Assembly (NCBI GenBank): GCA_026981635.1 | Contig: JALSIF010000047.1 | Location: 1 to 5,166 of the forward strand | Length of the DNA stretch: 5,166 bases | Reading direction: 5' to 3' | Source of the DNA: JALSIF01 sp026981635 [NCBI: bacterium] | GTDB lineage: Bacteria; 4484-113; JALSIF01 | Part shown: positions 1 to 5,166 of the stretch, one piece after another | Layout of the letters: each line of letters begins with the position of its first letter | How positions within the stretch are numbered: the first letter of the stretch is position 1 | Position numbers and translations under genes: made by a program | The notes under the pieces: model-generated | Database searches by the model: none | Told to the model about the DNA's origin: nothing | Seen by the model: the letters and a program-made list of their open reading frames with translations, nothing else

Positions 1-520
1 CAACGGAGAGGACATTGAGGTGGACGGGACCGGCCGGCTGGCTACTAGGGAACTGGGTGATGATGACCTGTTGGAGTGCTACGGACGGTCCACCCTGGAG
101 TTGGTGAGGGAGGCCTTTAGCTTTGCCGAACAGATTCTTCCCGCGGTGGTGGCGGATCTCAGGGAGGCCTCCCTGGACCTGCGCGGCAGGGACCAGGCCA
201 GAGGACTTGACCTGTTGATGGACAGCTTTGATGCCCTGGAGTGGTTCTTCACCGTCTGCGCCCGCACCGCCGAGGTCTACTCCCGACGGGAGCCGGAGAG
301 GCTGATGAAGTCCGCCCCGGGAGGGGAGCTGTTTGGGGTCTTCTCCAACCTGGACCGCCCCCTGGAGGTGCTGGCAGGGATAGAGAAGGCCCAGCGGGAG
401 GGCGACCTGGTCCTGGCCGCCGACCTCATTGAGTACGAGCTGGTTCCGCTGTTGGAGAGGTTCAGTGGGGAGGTTCCGCTAGTGAGAGAGCGTTTCAGGG
501 AGGAGACTGCCCGGGCCTGA
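1..520 (+). CDS. Small helical protein of unknown function next to MAF gene (5' end probably outside window)
   Basis: I do not recognise a named family. The frame is open from base 2 to the TGA at 518-520. A GTG at 20 with GGAGAGG (5-11) eight bases upstream could start a 166-aa protein. However, the codons before it read NGEDIEV, which looks like the edge of a beta-strand-rich N-terminal domain, so I favour a gene that begins to the left and is partial here. Counting from that GTG, residues 24-87 look alpha-helical and hold the segment DLLMDSFDALEWFF (64-77). Residues 124-148 form another amphipathic helix (GDLVLAADLIEYEL). There is no signal peptide, membrane segment or catalytic motif, and two cysteines (20, 80) fit a cytoplasmic protein. 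It ends 8 nt before the MAF gene, so co-transcription is likely. A role with the MAF protein or in flagellar assembly is inference from position only. It does not look like the FliJ coiled coil. Confidence 0.7.
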   Translation, partial: NGEDIEVDGTGRLATRELGDDDLLECYGRSTLELVREAFSFAEQILPAVVADLREASLDLRGRDQARGLDLLMDSFDALEWFFTVCARTAEVYSRREPERLMKSAPGGELFGVFSNLDRPLEVLAGIEKAQREGDLVLAADLIEYELVPLLERFSGEVPLVRERFREETARA

Positions 521-528: not shown

Positions 529-2523
529 GTGAGATACCTAGAGAGCAACCTCAAAGCAATCGCTGACCGCTTCCCCGAGATTGCAGCTCAGCTTGAGGAG
601 GCGGTGGGCATCAACCGTCCCCTGCTGGAAGAGGGGCGAATGGGGTGTTTCCAGCTGGCCCAAGCCCGCAGCGGCGATCCCACCGTGCGCTACCTGGATG
701 GGACGGGAGGCAAGTTTGTCCACTCCAGCTATGATCCCAGGCGGGAGGCGGCGGCCCTGGTTGAGGGCCAGCTGAGCGAGGAGCGGGAGAGGGACTTTGT
801 GATTGCCTCCGGGCTGGGGATGGGCTACGCCCTGGAGGAGGCGGCCCGGCGGCTTGGGGAGAGGACAAACCTCTTCTTCTATGAGCCCCACACTGACCTT
901 TTCCTGCTTGCCCTTGCCTGGCGCGACCTCACCTGGCTTTTTGGCCACCCCAACCTGGACTTCACCGTAGGGGAGGACTTTACTCCCTTGCTCAGGAATC
1001 TTGCCGCCCGGGTCAATCTGGCCACCGTCAAGGGGTTTGTCTATCTGGAGCACCCCATCCTCTCCACTCTGCCCAAGGGCAAGCTCATCAGTGGTTTTGG
1101 CGAGCAGGTCAGGGTGCTCTTCTTCCAGCTGGCAGGAAACCTCCAGACCATGATGTACATGGGGCCGAGCTACCTCTACCACTCCCTGGTCAGCTTTGAG
1201 GAGGTGATCCGCCGCCCGCCGGTCAAGGTGCTGTTTGACCAGTTTGGGGACCTTCCCGGCATCATCGTCTCGGCAGGCCCCAGCCTGGAAAAGAATGTTG
1301 ACCTCATAAGGGAGCTCGCCCTGGACCGCCGGGCGGTGATCGTTGCGGTTGACACCGCCCTAAAGCCCCTCCTAGCCAGGGGGATTGAGCCCCACATCGT
1401 CTGCACCGGTGACCCCCAGGAGGCCAACTACAAGCACCTTAAGGGGGCCAAGGTCAGGCGCTCCTGCCTGGTGGCCGAGCCCCAGGCCCCACCCAAGTCG
1501 GTGGCCGAGTGGACCGGTCCGGAGATCTTCTTCTGTTCCTTTGACGACCAGTTCATGAGGTGGCTCAATCCCCTGATTGGCCACCGGGGTCTGCTCAGGA
1601 CCTGGGGCAGTGTGGCCACCATGGCCTACGACCTGGTCCTCCAGATGGGCTGCGACCCGATCATCTTCATCGGCCAGGACCTCTCCTACCCGGGAGGGAA
1701 GACCTATGTGAGCGGCACCTACTTTGAGGAGGAGGATGCCTACCCCACCGAGGTGGAGGGGCTGAGGGAGCGCAATGTCCAACTCTACGAGGTGGAGGAC
1801 ATCTACGGCAACAAGGTGCTCACCAACCGGCAGATGCTGGCCTACCTGGAATACTTCCGCGCCCGCTTTGAGGAGGACCACGGCCGCACCCTGATCAACG
1901 CCACCGAGGGGGGGGCGCTGACCCACCCCAGGCTCAAGATCATGAGCCTGCGGGAGGCGGTGGAAAGCTACATGCAGGGGGAAAGCGACATAGACCGCCG
2001 CATCCTGAGCCTGGCCAGCAGTTACCAGCCGCCCAGCTACCGCCCCCTGCGCTTTGAGCTGGACCAGGTGCTGGCCGAGATGCGCGAGGGGCTGGACGAG
2101 TGCCAGCGGATGGTGGTGGAGTGTGCCAGGGTGAGGGCCATCTGCGACCGGGGCGGATCGGCCGACCAGGTGGTCCCCTACTACAACCGCATCGTGCGCA
2201 CCTACCACAGCTTCGTTGGCAAGAAGAAGCTCATTCGCTTCCTGAAGCTGGCTAACCACGCAGCTCTCCATACCTTTGAGCGCGGCATCTACCGGCTGGA
2301 GCAGCGAGAGAAGCTGGACCTGGAATTCGTGGCCGAGGCGGCCGAGCTCTACCACACCCTGTTTGTGACCAGCAGAGACGCCCTGGAGCGGATGATCCCC
2401 CTGTTTGAGGACGCGCGGGACGTGGTTGAGGAGATCATTGCGGGTCGCCGTGGGACGGGGGCAGCTCTCCACCGGGAGGGGCTCAAGCTGGTTGAACCAG
2501 GAGGGATAGCCAGTGGCGGCTAG
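529..2523 (+). CDS. Motility accessory factor (MAF / DUF115) family protein, probable flagellin glycosyltransferase
   Basis: This 664-aa protein belongs to the MAF family (DUF115, MptE-like), whose studied members are needed to put nonulosonic acid sugars (pseudaminic or legionaminic type) on flagellin Ser/Thr in the cytoplasm before export. The N-terminal domain shows a Rossmann-like GLGMGY at 95-100 and YEPH at 118-121. The central DUF115 core has PGIIVSAGPSLEKN (243-256), DTALKPLL (275-282), GDPQ (294-297), SVATMA (361-366) and GQDLSYPGGKTY (382-393), all close to family consensus. Residues after about 470 are mostly helical, as is usual for the C-terminal part. Length fits a full-size member. 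No signal peptide or membrane segment is seen, and several cysteines agree with a cytosolic enzyme. The GTG start at 529 gives a typical N terminus (MRYLESNLKAI). The 3' end overlaps the next gene by 11 nt. The donor sugar and acceptor cannot be read from this window; no flagellin or sugar-synthesis gene is present. Confidence 0.93.
   Translation: MRYLESNLKAIADRFPEIAAQLEEAVGINRPLLEEGRMGCFQLAQARSGDPTVRYLDGTGGKFVHSSYDPRREAAALVEGQLSEERERDFVIASGLGMGYALEEAARRLGERTNLFFYEPHTDLFLLALAWRDLTWLFGHPNLDFTVGEDFTPLLRNLAARVNLATVKGFVYLEHPILSTLPKGKLISGFGEQVRVLFFQLAGNLQTMMYMGPSYLYHSLVSFEEVIRRPPVKVLFDQFGDLPGIIVSAGPSLEKNVDLIRELALDRRAVIVAVDTALKPLLARGIEPHIVCTGDPQEANYKHLKGAKVRRSCLVAEPQAPPKSVAEWTGPEIFFCSFDDQFMRWLNPLIGHRGLLRTWGSVATMAYDLVLQMGCDPIIFIGQDLSYPGGKTYVSGTYFEEEDAYPTEVEGLRERNVQLYEVEDIYGNKVLTNRQMLAYLEYFRARFEEDHGRTLINATEGGALTHPRLKIMSLREAVESYMQGESDIDRRILSLASSYQPPSYRPLRFELDQVLAEMREGLDECQRMVVECARVRAICDRGGSADQVVPYYNRIVRTYHSFVGKKKLIRFLKLANHAALHTFERGIYRLEQREKLDLEFVAEAAELYHTLFVTSRDALERMIPLFEDARDVVEEIIAGRRGTGAALHREGLKLVEPGGIASGG
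2499..2505 (+). promoter_or_regulatory. Strong ribosome binding site inside the MAF gene for the YlxF/MotE-like gene
   Basis: AGGAGGG lies within the last MAF codons, 7 nt before the GTG at 2513. It decides the start of the downstream gene, because that GTG precedes the MAF stop codon (2521-2523) and makes the two genes overlap. Confidence 0.75.
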
Positions 2524-3196
2524 AGGTCAGCGGGAAGGAAGGGAAGGTTCCTCTGGACGCATCCCTCCCGGCAGCCCCTTCCGCAAGGTGGAGGACATCC
2601 CCCTTGATCAGTTTAAGGTTCCCGGGGTGGCCAAGGCGATGCTGGCTGCTGCCGTGCTAGTGGCTCTGCTCGCCATCGGACTGGGTTATCTCTCCACCCT
2701 GCCTCCCGCCCCTCCCCGTCAGGAGCGCCAGGCCCGCCGGGCGGGACGCGGTGATGGGTGGGTTATGGAGAGGGTGAGCCGAAGCCTCTACCACCTTGAG
2801 GCGGTGGCTCCACCGGTGATAGCCCAGCCGGCGGCAGAGGGGCTGGCTGAGGTTTCCCTTTCCCGGATGGATCCCCGCCGGGCGGCACAGCTGCTGGAGC
2901 TTTTGGCGCCGGAGACGGCAGCGGCCTTTCTTGCCCTCACTCCTGGCTGGAGGGTGGGAAGGATCATTGAAGAAATGAGCCCGCCCAAGGCCTCGCAGGT
3001 GCTTTTGCTTATGAGGTCCATGGACGGTCTGCCCATCGAAGAGGTGAGGATGATTGGGGAGGTGGCCATCCCGGTCCCCGGTCAGCCAGCGGCGAGCGTC
3101 CAGGGGGGAGGCACCCCAGCGGTTCCCCCATCCCCCGGACCGGCGGCGGGGCAGGGTCAGCCCGCCCCGGGAAGCGGTACTCAATCTGGGCCCTAG
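2513..3196 (+). CDS. YlxF/MotE-like single-pass membrane protein with MgtE-N-like segment
   Basis: The 227-aa product has a basic, disordered N terminus (1-37), one hydrophobic membrane helix (about 42-61), a Pro/Arg-rich linker (62-80) and a helical outer segment. Residues 117-168 carry two helix pairs of the type MDPRRAAQLLELL ... MSPPKASQVLLLM, resembling the MgtE N-terminal repeat found in YlxF and MotE. From about 186 to the end it is Pro/Gly/Gln-rich and probably disordered. There is no cysteine. In Bacillus subtilis ylxF lies directly before fliK, the same place as here; MotE of alpha-proteobacteria is a periplasmic helper of a motor protein, while the YlxF role is not settled. Most members have a coiled coil between membrane helix and MgtE-N part; here that spacer is short and not clearly coiled. 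It is therefore a divergent member, with assignment resting on architecture plus context. The GTG start is fixed by AGGAGGG at 2499-2505. Confidence 0.75.
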   Translation: MAARGQREGREGSSGRIPPGSPFRKVEDIPLDQFKVPGVAKAMLAAAVLVALLAIGLGYLSTLPPAPPRQERQARRAGRGDGWVMERVSRSLYHLEAVAPPVIAQPAAEGLAEVSLSRMDPRRAAQLLELLAPETAAAFLALTPGWRVGRIIEEMSPPKASQVLLLMRSMDGLPIEEVRMIGEVAIPVPGQPAASVQGGGTPAVPPSPGPAAGQGQPAPGSGTQSGP

Positions 3197-3207
3197 AGGG
3201 CCGATAA
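3181..3207 (+). promoter_or_regulatory. Candidate sigma-28/sigma-D flagellar promoter upstream of fliK
   Basis: GCCGATAA at 3200-3207 is an exact match to the consensus -10 of the flagellar sigma factor (FliA/SigD). At the canonical spacing, with 11 nt between the two octamers, lies TCAATCTG (3181-3188), whose first four bases match three of the four in the TAAA core of the -35. The -35 lies in the last codons of the upstream gene and the -10 starts 4 nt after its stop codon. Transcription would begin near 3214, giving a leader of about 35 nt before fliK. This is a motif match, not proof of activity. Confidence 0.6.
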
Positions 3208-3214
3208 ACTGACT

Positions 3215-3232
3215 TGGAGCCGCAGGGCTCCA
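3215..3232 (+). promoter_or_regulatory. Perfect 7-bp stem-loop in the fliK leader
   Basis: TGGAGCC (3215-3221) and GGCTCCA (3226-3232) pair perfectly around a 4-nt loop, GCAG. No T-run follows, so it is not an intrinsic terminator. It ends 6 nt before the fliK Shine-Dalgarno site and does not cover it. If transcription starts near 3214 from the candidate promoter, the hairpin forms the 5' terminus of the mRNA, where such structures are known to slow decay. In a read-through transcript it could instead mark a processing or stabilising site. Confidence 0.6.
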
Positions 3233-3238
3233 CACGAA

Positions 3239-3246
3239 AGGAGGTG
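3239..3246 (+). promoter_or_regulatory. Strong ribosome binding site of fliK
   Basis: AGGAGGTG is near-perfectly complementary to the 16S rRNA 3' end. It stands 4 nt (counted from AGGAGG) before the ATG at 3249 and 7 nt before an in-frame GTG at 3252. The second spacing is closer to optimum, so the true start could be either; the protein differs by one residue. Confidence 0.8.
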
Positions 3247-3248
3247 GT

Positions 3249-4934
3249 ATGGTGGCACTGCTGGAGCAGCTAGCACTGCTCAGTCTGCTCACCGGAAAGG
3301 TGGGTAGCAAGGATGCAGATTCCACTGCCACCTCCTCATTCTCCTCCCCCAAGGGAAGGGTAGGAGAGTTTCAGCAGGTGCTCTCTAGTTTGCTGGCTGA
3401 GCTGGTGGCCCTGACCGAGCAGGGGGATCCCAAACAGGGGGAACTCAATGGGGAAACCTCGGCTAGAGAGGGAGATGCCCTTCTTGCGCGGGGGGAAGGG
3501 CTGACCATCGGTCAGCCCCCACTTCCCGCCGAAGGGAAGGACCCCTCAATGGAGAGGGCTAAGGAGATAGGGCCCATCCTTGATGGTGAGTTAGATGTTG
3601 GGGGCGAGGGGGCTAGCAGGAGCCCTGTCTCTCAGAAAGGAAGGGAGGTGCTTGCCCAGGTAGTGGGGACGTCCAGTCTGGGAGGACTGACCCTGGCAGG
3701 CTCGATCCAGTCGGCAGCAGGACCATCCTTCCCCTCCGCAGGATCGGCCGGGCAAGCTCCCCCCTCAGGAGTATCAGCGTCATTTTCCCAGCCTCTCCAG
3801 GTGGGTCTGGAGGGTGAGGAAGGGGTGGATCTGCTGATGAGACTTTTGGGGGTGAGGGTAGCCCTTGTTTCCTCACCCGATATCACCGCCCAAGGGAATA
3901 GGCCCCAGGAAATTGCCGGGCAGCTTGCCCGAGCCCAGATGGAGATGGTGATGATGATGGAGAAGTCAGCCGCCAAGAGCATCGGTCAGGAAGAAAAGGG
4001 CGCTCAGGTTGAGAGCCGGTTCGTTCAGCTCAGGAATGTTCCCCAGCCAGTGGTCACCTACTACTTCCTCCACGACCCCCGTGCCCTCAAGGCGGCGGCG
4101 GGGCCCAACCCCCTGTTCAAGGAGAATAGTCGGCCAGAGGTGATGGCTGATGCTAAGCGAAATGGCTCTGCCCAGGGGCTGGCAGTGGGAATGGAGAGAG
4201 AGGGAGCTGACCAAGGGGTCATACCCGCCTCGAAGAATGGGCAGGTGGAGGGAGCGGGGGAGAGCTCCCGCCCGCAGGAGCGGGGCGAGCGGCCGGCGGG
4301 AGAAGAGAGGTGGGCTAGGCTTGCCATCACTACAACTTTGCGGAAAAACGGTTCTGACGAAGGCACCTCGGCCGTGGTGACCGGCCACGCCTCCCAGGAT
4401 GCTTCTTCGGCCGGTATGGCTGTCCGGGGGGGGAGTAACGGTGCCCAGGGGAGTTTCCCGCTGCGCACTGAGTCTCTGACCGAGCTTCTGCTTGCCCAGC
4501 TCGCCGAGCTCAGTCAGCGGCCCGAACGGCCGACTGTATCTCAGCTCAGGCTGGAGCTCCATCCTCCCGAGCTAGGGGAGCTCAGGGCCGAGCTACACCT
4601 CCACCGGGAGGGTTTGGAGCTTAGGCTGATCACTCCCAATGGTCAGGCCCGAGAGCTTTTGGCCAGCCAGGCGGCGGGGCTAAGGGAGGCGCTGGCCCAG
4701 CACTATGGGGGGGAGGTGAGAGTGATAGTGCAGGGGCAGAATCTGGCCTTGGCCGGAGGGATGGCCGGTTGGAACCAGCAGAATGGGGAGGAGAGGCAGG
4801 GCGGAAACGGTTCGGCAAGGTTAGGGGAAAGTGGTGGCCCCCCCGGGGTGGTGGGTCATGTGAGGGAGGGCGAGGGCGATAAGCGAGTCCCCGAAGCCAA
4901 CCTGTTTAGCGACCCCACTGCCCGCTACATCTAG
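3249..4934 (+). CDS. fliK: Flagellar hook-length control protein FliK
   Basis: FliK is exported through the flagellar type III apparatus, measures hook length and switches export from rod/hook to filament substrates. The diagnostic part is the C-terminal Flg_hook domain at about 425-500: LRLELHPPELGELRAEL (433-449) fits the conserved L-L-P-x-LG-x-L/V pattern, followed by RELLASQAAGLREAL, the usual helix before the final strand. The N-terminal three quarters is low-complexity, rich in Gly, Ser, Glu and Gln, as expected for the unfolded ruler part. A more ordered island lies near 190-285, with a methionine-rich stretch (MEMVMMMEKS) and QPVVTYYFLHDP at 266-277. At 561 aa it is longer than the Salmonella protein (about 405 aa). 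No cysteine is present, as often in exported axial proteins. A 60-residue Gly/Glu/Arg-rich tail follows the domain. Its position between the YlxF/MotE-like gene and flgD matches Firmicutes operons. Its stop codon overlaps the flgD ribosome binding site. Confidence 0.92.
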   Translation: MVALLEQLALLSLLTGKVGSKDADSTATSSFSSPKGRVGEFQQVLSSLLAELVALTEQGDPKQGELNGETSAREGDALLARGEGLTIGQPPLPAEGKDPSMERAKEIGPILDGELDVGGEGASRSPVSQKGREVLAQVVGTSSLGGLTLAGSIQSAAGPSFPSAGSAGQAPPSGVSASFSQPLQVGLEGEEGVDLLMRLLGVRVALVSSPDITAQGNRPQEIAGQLARAQMEMVMMMEKSAAKSIGQEEKGAQVESRFVQLRNVPQPVVTYYFLHDPRALKAAAGPNPLFKENSRPEVMADAKRNGSAQGLAVGMEREGADQGVIPASKNGQVEGAGESSRPQERGERPAGEERWARLAITTTLRKNGSDEGTSAVVTGHASQDASSAGMAVRGGSNGAQGSFPLRTESLTELLLAQLAELSQRPERPTVSQLRLELHPPELGELRAELHLHREGLELRLITPNGQARELLASQAAGLREALAQHYGGEVRVIVQGQNLALAGGMAGWNQQNGEERQGGNGSARLGESGGPPGVVGHVREGEGDKRVPEANLFSDPTARYI

Positions 4935-4948: not shown

Positions 4949-5166
4949 ATGATGCTCAAGGCTGTCGCCCAGAGTGATCCCAAGGCTCTGGTGGGAAGTG
5001 AACCTGATCAGAGAGTAATTGAGCCTAGCCCCGGCCAAGCGGGAAAGCGACTAGGAGAAGATTCGGAAATTTTTCTGAAGTTGGTAGTGGCCCAACTCCG
5101 TCAACAGAACCCCCTCAAACCGCTGGACAACGCTGAGATGATGCAGCAGCTTGCCGCCTTCAACCA
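4949..5166 (+). CDS. flgD: Flagellar hook capping / scaffold protein FlgD, N-terminal part (cut by window end)
   Basis: The frame from ATG 4949 stays open to the right edge, giving 72 codons and two extra bases. FlgD caps the growing hook outside the cell and is needed for polymerisation of FlgE. After a polar lead of about 35 residues comes the hallmark N-terminal FlgD motif: E40-IFLKLVVAQLRQQNPLKPLDN-A62, then EMMQQLAAFN (63-72), matching the family pattern FLKLLVTQLxxQDPLxPMDNxEFxxQLAxFS. QNP replaces the more usual QDP. The C-terminal FLN-like and Ig-like domains lie outside. ATG 4952 directly follows ATG 4949, and either could be the start. It follows fliK by 14 nt, so both are surely in one transcript. 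No cysteine is seen in the visible part. Confidence 0.93.
   Translation, partial: MMLKAVAQSDPKALVGSEPDQRVIEPSPGQAGKRLGEDSEIFLKLVVAQLRQQNPLKPLDNAEMMQQLAAFN

What the first reader, a model, noticed from the sequence alone, without database searches (positions are those of the whole stretch)
3181..3214. Exact flagellar-sigma -10 (GCCGATAA) with correctly spaced -35-like element in the gap before fliK
Seen: GCCGATAA at 3200-3207 and TCAATCTG at 3181-3188, separated by exactly 11 nt, the spacing of the sigma-28 consensus TAAAGTTT-N11-GCCGATAA. It lies in the only gap longer than 14 nt in the window, on the right strand, 42 nt before fliK. Inference: an internal late-class promoter could raise fliK, flgD and downstream hook genes once the flagellar sigma factor is active. 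That would be notable, because hook genes are normally transcribed before the flagellar sigma is released.
Basis: partly seen in the sequence, partly recalled or inferred. Interest (0 to 1): 0.65.

Follow-up and report, generated by a model that had tools for sequence, protein, structure and literature searches.

The report
Flagellar-sigma promoter inside hook-gene operon
A short DNA switch that answers to the flagellum's own late sigma factor very probably sits just before the hook-length gene fliK in this uncultured bacterium, and one is found at or next to that spot in the five flagellated relatives examined, so hook genes there can probably be boosted late in assembly; a similar internal switch is already known in Bacillus.

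Summary
The letters are as described: TCAATCTG 3181-3188, 11 nt, GCCGATAA 3200-3207, on the fliK strand, 41 nt before the ATG. The -35 is only 4/8 of TAAAGTTT (3/4 of the TAAA core) and lies in the last codons of ylxF; only the -10 is in the 52-nt gap. The motif is probably functional. The genome encodes sigma-28, and its flagellin gene carries TAAAGTTC-N11-GCCGATAC. In all five other flagellated genomes held of the class a matching site (at least 9/11) lies just before fliK (3) or before the preceding ylxF (3; one has both), where background predicts about 1.6% per genome. TCAA-N15-GCCGATA also stands before flgM, fliD, fliS and flagellin in relatives, so the weak -35 looks like an accepted variant. 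Elsewhere only 5 of 95 fliK loci have a site (expected 1.3). Best reading: an internal sigma-28 promoter that boosts fliK and downstream hook genes after hook completion, comparable to B. subtilis PylxF3 (PMC3865298, passages). I had no expression data. Known kind, new and conserved instance in a little-known phylum.

The parts
3181..3184 (+). -35 core TCAA of the predicted sigma-28 promoter (3 of 4 of TAAA), inside the last codons of ylxF
   Evidence: TCAA-N15-GCCGATA also found before flgM, fliD, fliS and flagellin in class relatives
3185..3199 (+). 15-nt spacer; contains the ylxF stop codon (3194-3196) and most of a small palindrome GGCCC-TAGA-GGGCC (3189-3202)
3200..3207 (+). -10 element GCCGATAA
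3213..3215 (+). expected transcription start (inferred from the usual -10 to +1 distance, not measured)
   Evidence: inference
3215..3232 (+). 7-bp hairpin TGGAGCC-GCAG-GGCTCCA that would begin near the 5' end of the leader; fold z-score only about -1.2
3238..3245 (+). probable ribosome-binding site AAGGAGGT of fliK
   Evidence: read directly
2513..3196 (+). ylxF/motE-like gene (MgtE_N-like region, E=8e-4, below Pfam cut-off)
   Evidence: BLASTP to the genes before fliK in G001 and G005
3249..4934 (+). fliK, hook-length control (PF02120)
4949..5166 (+). flgD, hook cap, cut by the contig end (PF03963)
529..2523 (+). MptE-like / Maf family gene upstream in the same run of genes

Best explanation
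The 3181-3207 element is a real but sub-consensus sigma-28 (FliA/SigD) promoter inside a flagellar gene run. The run Maf-ylxF-fliK-flgD is presumably also read through from an upstream promoter that lies outside the contig. Once the hook-basal body can export FlgM, freed sigma-28 starts extra transcripts near 3214 that carry fliK, flgD and, judging by relatives, flgE and further genes, so later rounds of flagellum building or filament repair get more hook parts. Shown: the letters, the sigma factor gene, the consensus at the genome's own flagellin gene, and a like site before fliK or ylxF in five relatives. Inferred: activity, start point, read-through, FlgM-dependent timing and the purpose.
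For: Sigma-28 gene in the same assembly (TIGR02479, 251 bits, over cut-off). Own flagellin promoter TAAAGTTC-N11-GCCGATAC 194 nt before the start of the flagellin domain match; TAAA-N16-GCCGATAT ahead of a marginal flgM candidate and flgK. Relatives: G004 TTAA-N15-GCCGATAA at -89 in a 150-nt ylxF-fliK gap; G002 TCAA-N15-ACCGATAA at -98; G007 TCAA-N15-GCCGATAC at -109 plus TAAA-N15-GCCGATCT before ylxF; G001 TAAA-N16-GCCGATAA and G005 TCAA-N15-GACGATAA before ylxF. Background in the same loci: 11 sites of score 9 or more in 199,778 positions, so 5 of 5 relatives with a site in one of two 150-nt windows has a naive p of 1.2e-9, or 2.7e-4 if each family counts once. TCAA as an accepted -35: 6 of 18 TCAA-N15-GCCGATA sites (20 fetched, 2 at the ylxF-fliK run set aside) precede flgM (two, in tandem with TAAA sites), fliD, fliS, a rod-type gene or flagellin; none of 17 TGAA sites (18 fetched, one inside fliK set aside) was recognised as doing so, though only the five intergenic TGAA sites with a gene close behind were looked at for gene identity. 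T. denticola flaB2 has a mapped sigma-28 promoter with -35 TTAA and -10 CCGATAA (PMC9481697, passages). Behind fliK: flgD, a PF12611 protein and flgE in G004; flgE in G001 and G007; flbD, fliM, a FliN-type protein, fliO and fliP further on in G002.
Against: No transcript data. -35 only 4/8 (3/4 of core). No site before fliK in G001 and G005. The looser motif is not enriched in the own genome. 90 of 95 fliK loci outside the class lack a site. The relatives fall in two families, so they are not independent; the score cut-off and the 150-nt windows were fixed after the loci had been seen. In the class 8 of the 15 flagellin loci checked (of 20 flagellin-domain places found) have no site of score 9 or more within 500 nt, so the consensus used here is not complete.
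Confidence: 0.72

Rival explanations
1. Chance match: GCCGATAA arises from the gene-end sequence and the small palindrome GGCCCTAGAGGGCC, and no promoter is there.
For: 61 GCCGATAW in the assembly; the looser two-part motif is no commoner there than its reversed control; -35 weak; GCC of the -10 is part of one arm of the palindrome.
Against: p=6.7e-6 for the two-part motif in a gap of this size; a site before fliK or ylxF in 5 of 5 flagellated relatives held; TCAA variant seen at late genes.
Confidence: 0.2
2. The gap holds a leader RNA hairpin that tunes fliK translation or mRNA processing, and this, not a promoter, is what matters.
For: In the six class loci folded, the minimum-energy fold has a small hairpin at or near the ylxF-fliK junction, e.g. 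CACCGG-GCGAAG-CCGGTG in G005; cleaved transcripts there would also give 5' ends.
Against: Fold z-scores are unremarkable (0.25 to -2.27), the G004 hairpin is missing from its centroid fold, sequences are unalike, no Rfam match, and it does not explain TNAA-N15-GCCGATA. It can coexist with a promoter.
Confidence: 0.06
3. In this class sigma-28 is the main, not an auxiliary, sigma factor for the ylxF-fliK-flgD-flgE hook genes, so the hook is made in the sigma-28 tier. (A stronger form of the best explanation, not exclusive of it.)
For: In family f2 (G001, G005, G007) the gene run from ylxF on follows a purM-like (AIR synthase domain) gene and a small probable lipoprotein gene and starts right behind a sigma-28-like site; in G004 the upstream orf-Maf-ylxF run and a FlgE/F/G-type rod gene also follow TCAA-N15-GCCGATAA; no sigma-70-like promoter found in window 2900-3500.
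Against: FlgM is over cut-off in five of six flagellated genomes and marginal in the window's own (E=0.09), which makes hook genes that depend wholly on sigma-28 a deadlock unless leaky; promoters upstream of the runs were not scanned for other sigma types, and the scan used covers only sigma-70 type.
Confidence: 0.12

Closest known systems
PylxF3, SigD-dependent promoter inside the B. subtilis fla/che operon
   Same: Sigma-28-class promoter inside a long flagellar operon (promoter, SigD dependence and partial control of sigD: PMC3865298, passages; its place before ylxF and the gene order ylxF-fliK-flgD-flgE behind it are recalled). In G001, G005 and G007 the site is likewise before ylxF.
   Different: In the window, G004 and G002 the site is one gene further on, before fliK. 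In B. subtilis sigD lies downstream in the operon, giving feedback; here no FliA relative was found in the 17.8-20 kb stretches fetched around fliK in five relatives and the window's own FliA is on another contig. No B. subtilis sequence was compared.
Treponema fla operon promoter before tap1 (fliK)
   Same: A sigma-28-like promoter directly before tap1/fliK-flgD-flgE is recalled from Limberger et al. 1996 (seen only as a reference in PMC4032328; the paper is not held). T. denticola proteins of the fla operon fall in flgE and motB mutants (PMC6930189, passages). Mapped T. denticola flaB2 promoter: -35 TTAA, -10 CCGATAA (PMC9481697, passages).
   Different: Other phylum; no comparison of the sequences was made here.
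E. coli fliLMNOPQR dual FlhDC/FliA control
   Same: A mid-class operon that also has a FliA site: ChIP-seq site upstream of fliLMNOPQR (PMC4183435, passages).
   Different: In E. coli fliFGHIJK shows no FliA ChIP signal and no expression change (same passages), so fliK there is not under sigma-28.

Membership tests
sigma-28 (FliA/SigD) promoter | -10 GCCGATAA | tested here: met
   exact, 3200-3207
sigma-28 (FliA/SigD) promoter | -35 TAAA (TAAAGTTT) 15 nt (11 nt) before the -10 | tested here: inconclusive
   spacing exact; letters 3/4 of core, 4/8 of octamer; TCAA variant stands before late genes in relatives
sigma-28 (FliA/SigD) promoter | genome encodes sigma-28 and uses this consensus at flagellin | tested here: met
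   FliA; flagellin upstream TAAAGTTC-N11-GCCGATAC
sigma-28 (FliA/SigD) promoter | site kept in relatives | tested here: met
   score 9 or more of 11 before fliK in 3 of 5 flagellated relatives, before ylxF in 3 of 5, one or both in 5 of 5; position not fixed
sigma-28 (FliA/SigD) promoter | sigma-28-dependent transcript start | not testable with these tools
   no expression data
PylxF3-type internal promoter of fla/che | lies inside a flagellar gene run near ylxF/fliK | tested here: met
PylxF3-type internal promoter of fla/che | sigma-28 gene lies downstream in the same operon (feedback) | tested here: not met
   no FliA relative in L051-L055 (tblastn); own FliA on contig C75; the stretches and contigs end, so not exhaustive

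The most novel reading that the evidence does not exclude
In this little-known phylum the hook operon belongs to the sigma-28 tier itself: sigma-28-type sites stand before ylxF or fliK in the window and in both other flagellated families, and also before a rod-type gene in one genome, so hook building and filament building share one sigma factor and the FlgM checkpoint must work differently from the Salmonella scheme.
Probability: 0.12. Interest if true: 0.6.

Novelty: new member of a known kind. Interest (0 to 1): 0.4.

Why it matters
The usual order says hook genes are made before sigma-28 is free. A sigma-28-like site found before fliK or ylxF in all six flagellated genomes held of a class, shifting between the two neighbouring gene starts, suggests that late feedback on hook genes is useful enough to be retained. 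With B. subtilis PylxF3 it argues that the lack of FliA control seen for E. coli fliFGHIJK is not general. It is testable by 5'-end mapping or by in vitro transcription with FliA.

Tried and rejected
Strict consensus TAAAGNTT-N10-12-GCCGATAA in the own genome: none. ylxF protein search in 60 genomes of the 'relatives' set: only itself. Maf protein as a single query in genome contigs: no relative; with the three-sequence alignment: one locus, L097, a contig of the same length (33,644) as the fliK contig of G002, titled MAG bacterium isolate AUK090; so no named close relative of the window was obtained and the phylum was not named.

Sigma-28 site before flgB: G002 and G004 share TAAA-N15-GACGATAT near the end of the upstream gene and the window's genome has TAAA-N15-TCCGATCT at a like place, but it lies in coding sequence and may be protein conservation; not claimed.

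The first flagellin scan read minus-strand loci in the wrong orientation; redone. The TNAA-N14-16-GCCGATA pattern is only modestly commoner than its reversed control in the six flagellated genomes (148 against 81) and about equal in the four without fliK or flagellin hits (46 against 37) (summed).

Hairpins as the main feature: fold z-scores unremarkable, no Rfam match. Sigma-70-like promoter in 2900-3500: none found. Paper searches that gave nothing on this point: (PMC4526659, passages, only says that rod and hook genes form a separate tier in C. jejuni).

Full report
Observation. The window is a whole contig (C47) of a 1.75-Mb, 317-contig assembly, 85% complete. Five genes run on the + strand: an ORF without Pfam match (2-520), a Maf/MptE-like gene (529-2523), a ylxF/motE-like gene (2513-3196), fliK (3249-4934) and the start of flgD (4949-5166). 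GCCGATAA is at 3200-3207 and TCAATCTG at 3181-3188, 11 nt apart. The -35 half is weak (4 of 8) and lies in the last codons of ylxF. In a random 52-nt gap of this composition GCCGATAA has p=2.3e-4, and with 3 of 4 of TAAA at the right spacing 6.7e-6. In the whole assembly, however, GCCGATAW occurs 61 times and the looser two-part motif is no commoner than a reversed control, so letters alone do not settle it.

Does the genome use this consensus? Yes. It encodes a sigma-28 over the family cut-off (TIGR02479, 251 bits) and a flagellin. Upstream of that flagellin stands TAAAGTTC-N11-GCCGATAC, and a TAAA-N16-GCCGATAT stands ahead of a marginal flgM candidate (E=0.09), a 190-aa gene without NCBIfam match and flgK. 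A CAAA-N15-GCCGATAA follows the flagellin-domain gene behind flgK (probable flgL) and precedes a small gene and a fliW-like gene.

Relatives. The phylum has ten held genomes, all of one class; six have both FliK and flagellin matches. In the five others I read the region around fliK. The gene before fliK is taken as ylxF by place; support is BLASTP between the window and G001 and G005, among G001, G005 and G007, and between G002 and G004, and a sub-threshold MgtE_N match in the window and G004. With a score of up to 11 (TAAA plus GCCGATA, minus 0.5 for spacing 14 or 16), sites of 9 or more within 150 nt upstream of fliK are: window 10 (-49), G004 10 (-89), G002 9 (-98), G007 10 (-109); G001 and G005 none. 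Upstream of ylxF: G001 10.5, G005 9, G007 10, each 16 nt before the first possible start (the true start may be further on); window, G004, G002 none. Elsewhere in the same six loci, both strands, 11 sites of 9 or more and 3 of 10 or more occur in 199,778 positions. Naive probabilities: 3 of 5 relatives before fliK 5.5e-6; 5 of 5 before fliK or ylxF 1.2e-9; two families, one draw each, 2.7e-4. The cut-off and windows were chosen after seeing the loci, and the relatives belong to two families, so the last figure is the fairest. A pairwise alignment of G004 with G002 keeps CCGATAAT in register while much of the spacer differs.

Is TCAA an acceptable -35? Sites TNAA-N14-16-GCCGATA were listed in the ten genomes (the listing stopped within G004, so the G002 and G000 rows were not shown). 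I fetched all listed N15 sites with TCAA, TGAA or TAAA of G001, G005, G007 and of the shown part of G004: 20, 18 and 16. 13 of 20 TCAA, 6 of 18 TGAA and 10 of 16 TAAA sites are intergenic by a simple ORF rule. TCAA sites precede flgM in G001 and G005, each 108-126 bp behind a TAAA site, fliD, fliS and a FlgE/F/G-type rod gene, and a flagellin: 6 of 18 after setting aside the two at the ylxF-fliK run, against 0 of 17 TGAA sites (one inside fliK set aside); Fisher p=0.019. The comparison is uneven: of the TGAA sites only the five with a gene close behind were looked at for gene identity, four by eye and one by Pfam. A mapped T. denticola sigma-28 promoter also departs from TAAA (TTAA; PMC9481697, passages).

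How general? Two of the five (L181, L193) sit in the gap between fliK and the preceding ORF. So the arrangement is uncommon in bacteria at large. Sites before ylxF were not surveyed there.

Mechanism. fliK is followed by flgD, a PF12611 protein and flgE in G004; flgE is also found behind fliK in G001 and G007; in G002 flbD, fliM, a FliN-type protein, fliO and fliP lie further on (its genes between fliK and flbD were not tested against families). A sigma-28 start before fliK would therefore raise hook parts, and perhaps switch and export parts, after FlgM has been exported; FlgM is over cut-off in five of six flagellated genomes. This resembles PylxF3 of B. subtilis (PMC3865298, passages), except that no sigma-28 gene is in the stretches read. 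Why FlgM-gated hook genes are useful is inference: repair, or extra flagella per cell; the E. coli paper discusses repair for dual-controlled flgKL and fliDST (PMC4183435, passages). E. coli fliFGHIJK itself shows no FliA control (same passages), so the feature differs between lineages.

Verdict. Probably a real internal sigma-28 promoter (0.72), of a known kind, in a new lineage, with the site shifting between ylxF and fliK. I found no measurement. The bolder reading, that sigma-28 is the main sigma of the hook operon in this phylum, is not excluded. On re-checking I set the odds of that reading to 0.12 in both fields (one had read 0.15), because the genes behind fliK were family-tested in fewer relatives than I had first written.

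Noticed in passing
L231 (G001:C40), L237 (G005:C92), L228 (G001:C23), about position 2000 on the gene's strand: TCAA-N15-GCCGATA sites whose -10 ends only 2-9 nt before the first possible start codon of the gene (fliD in L231), leaving little room for a ribosome-binding site; this hints at leaderless sigma-28 transcripts or mis-set starts.
   Followed up: partly
G001:C7 27382-27533, G005:C82 8820-8953, G005:C17 18949-19088: Tandem sigma-28-like sites, TAAA type then TCAA type, 108-126 bp apart before flgM (twice) and a flagellin.
   Followed up: partly
window 2-520: ORF without Pfam family, related (29% identity) to a 216-aa gene of G004 that itself starts 35 nt behind TCAA-N15-GCCGATAA and is followed by the same Maf-ylxF-fliK order.
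   Followed up: partly
window 529-2523: Maf/MptE-like gene (a family recalled as linked to flagellin glycosylation) sits directly before ylxF in the window and in G004 and G002 (BLASTP 36-59% identity), while a purM-like and a small probable lipoprotein gene stand there in G001, G005 and G007.
   Followed up: no
window 3189-3202 and 3215-3232; like places in L051, L053, L054, L055: Short hairpins of unlike sequence are predicted between ylxF and fliK in the class; fold scores are not unusual.
   Followed up: partly
L290 433, L291 501, L288 441 (position on the fliE strand): TAAA-N15-GACGATAT sites within the gene before flgB in G002 and G004, and a weaker one in the window's genome; may be coding conservation or a sigma-28 promoter of the flgB run like B. 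subtilis PD-3.
   Followed up: partly
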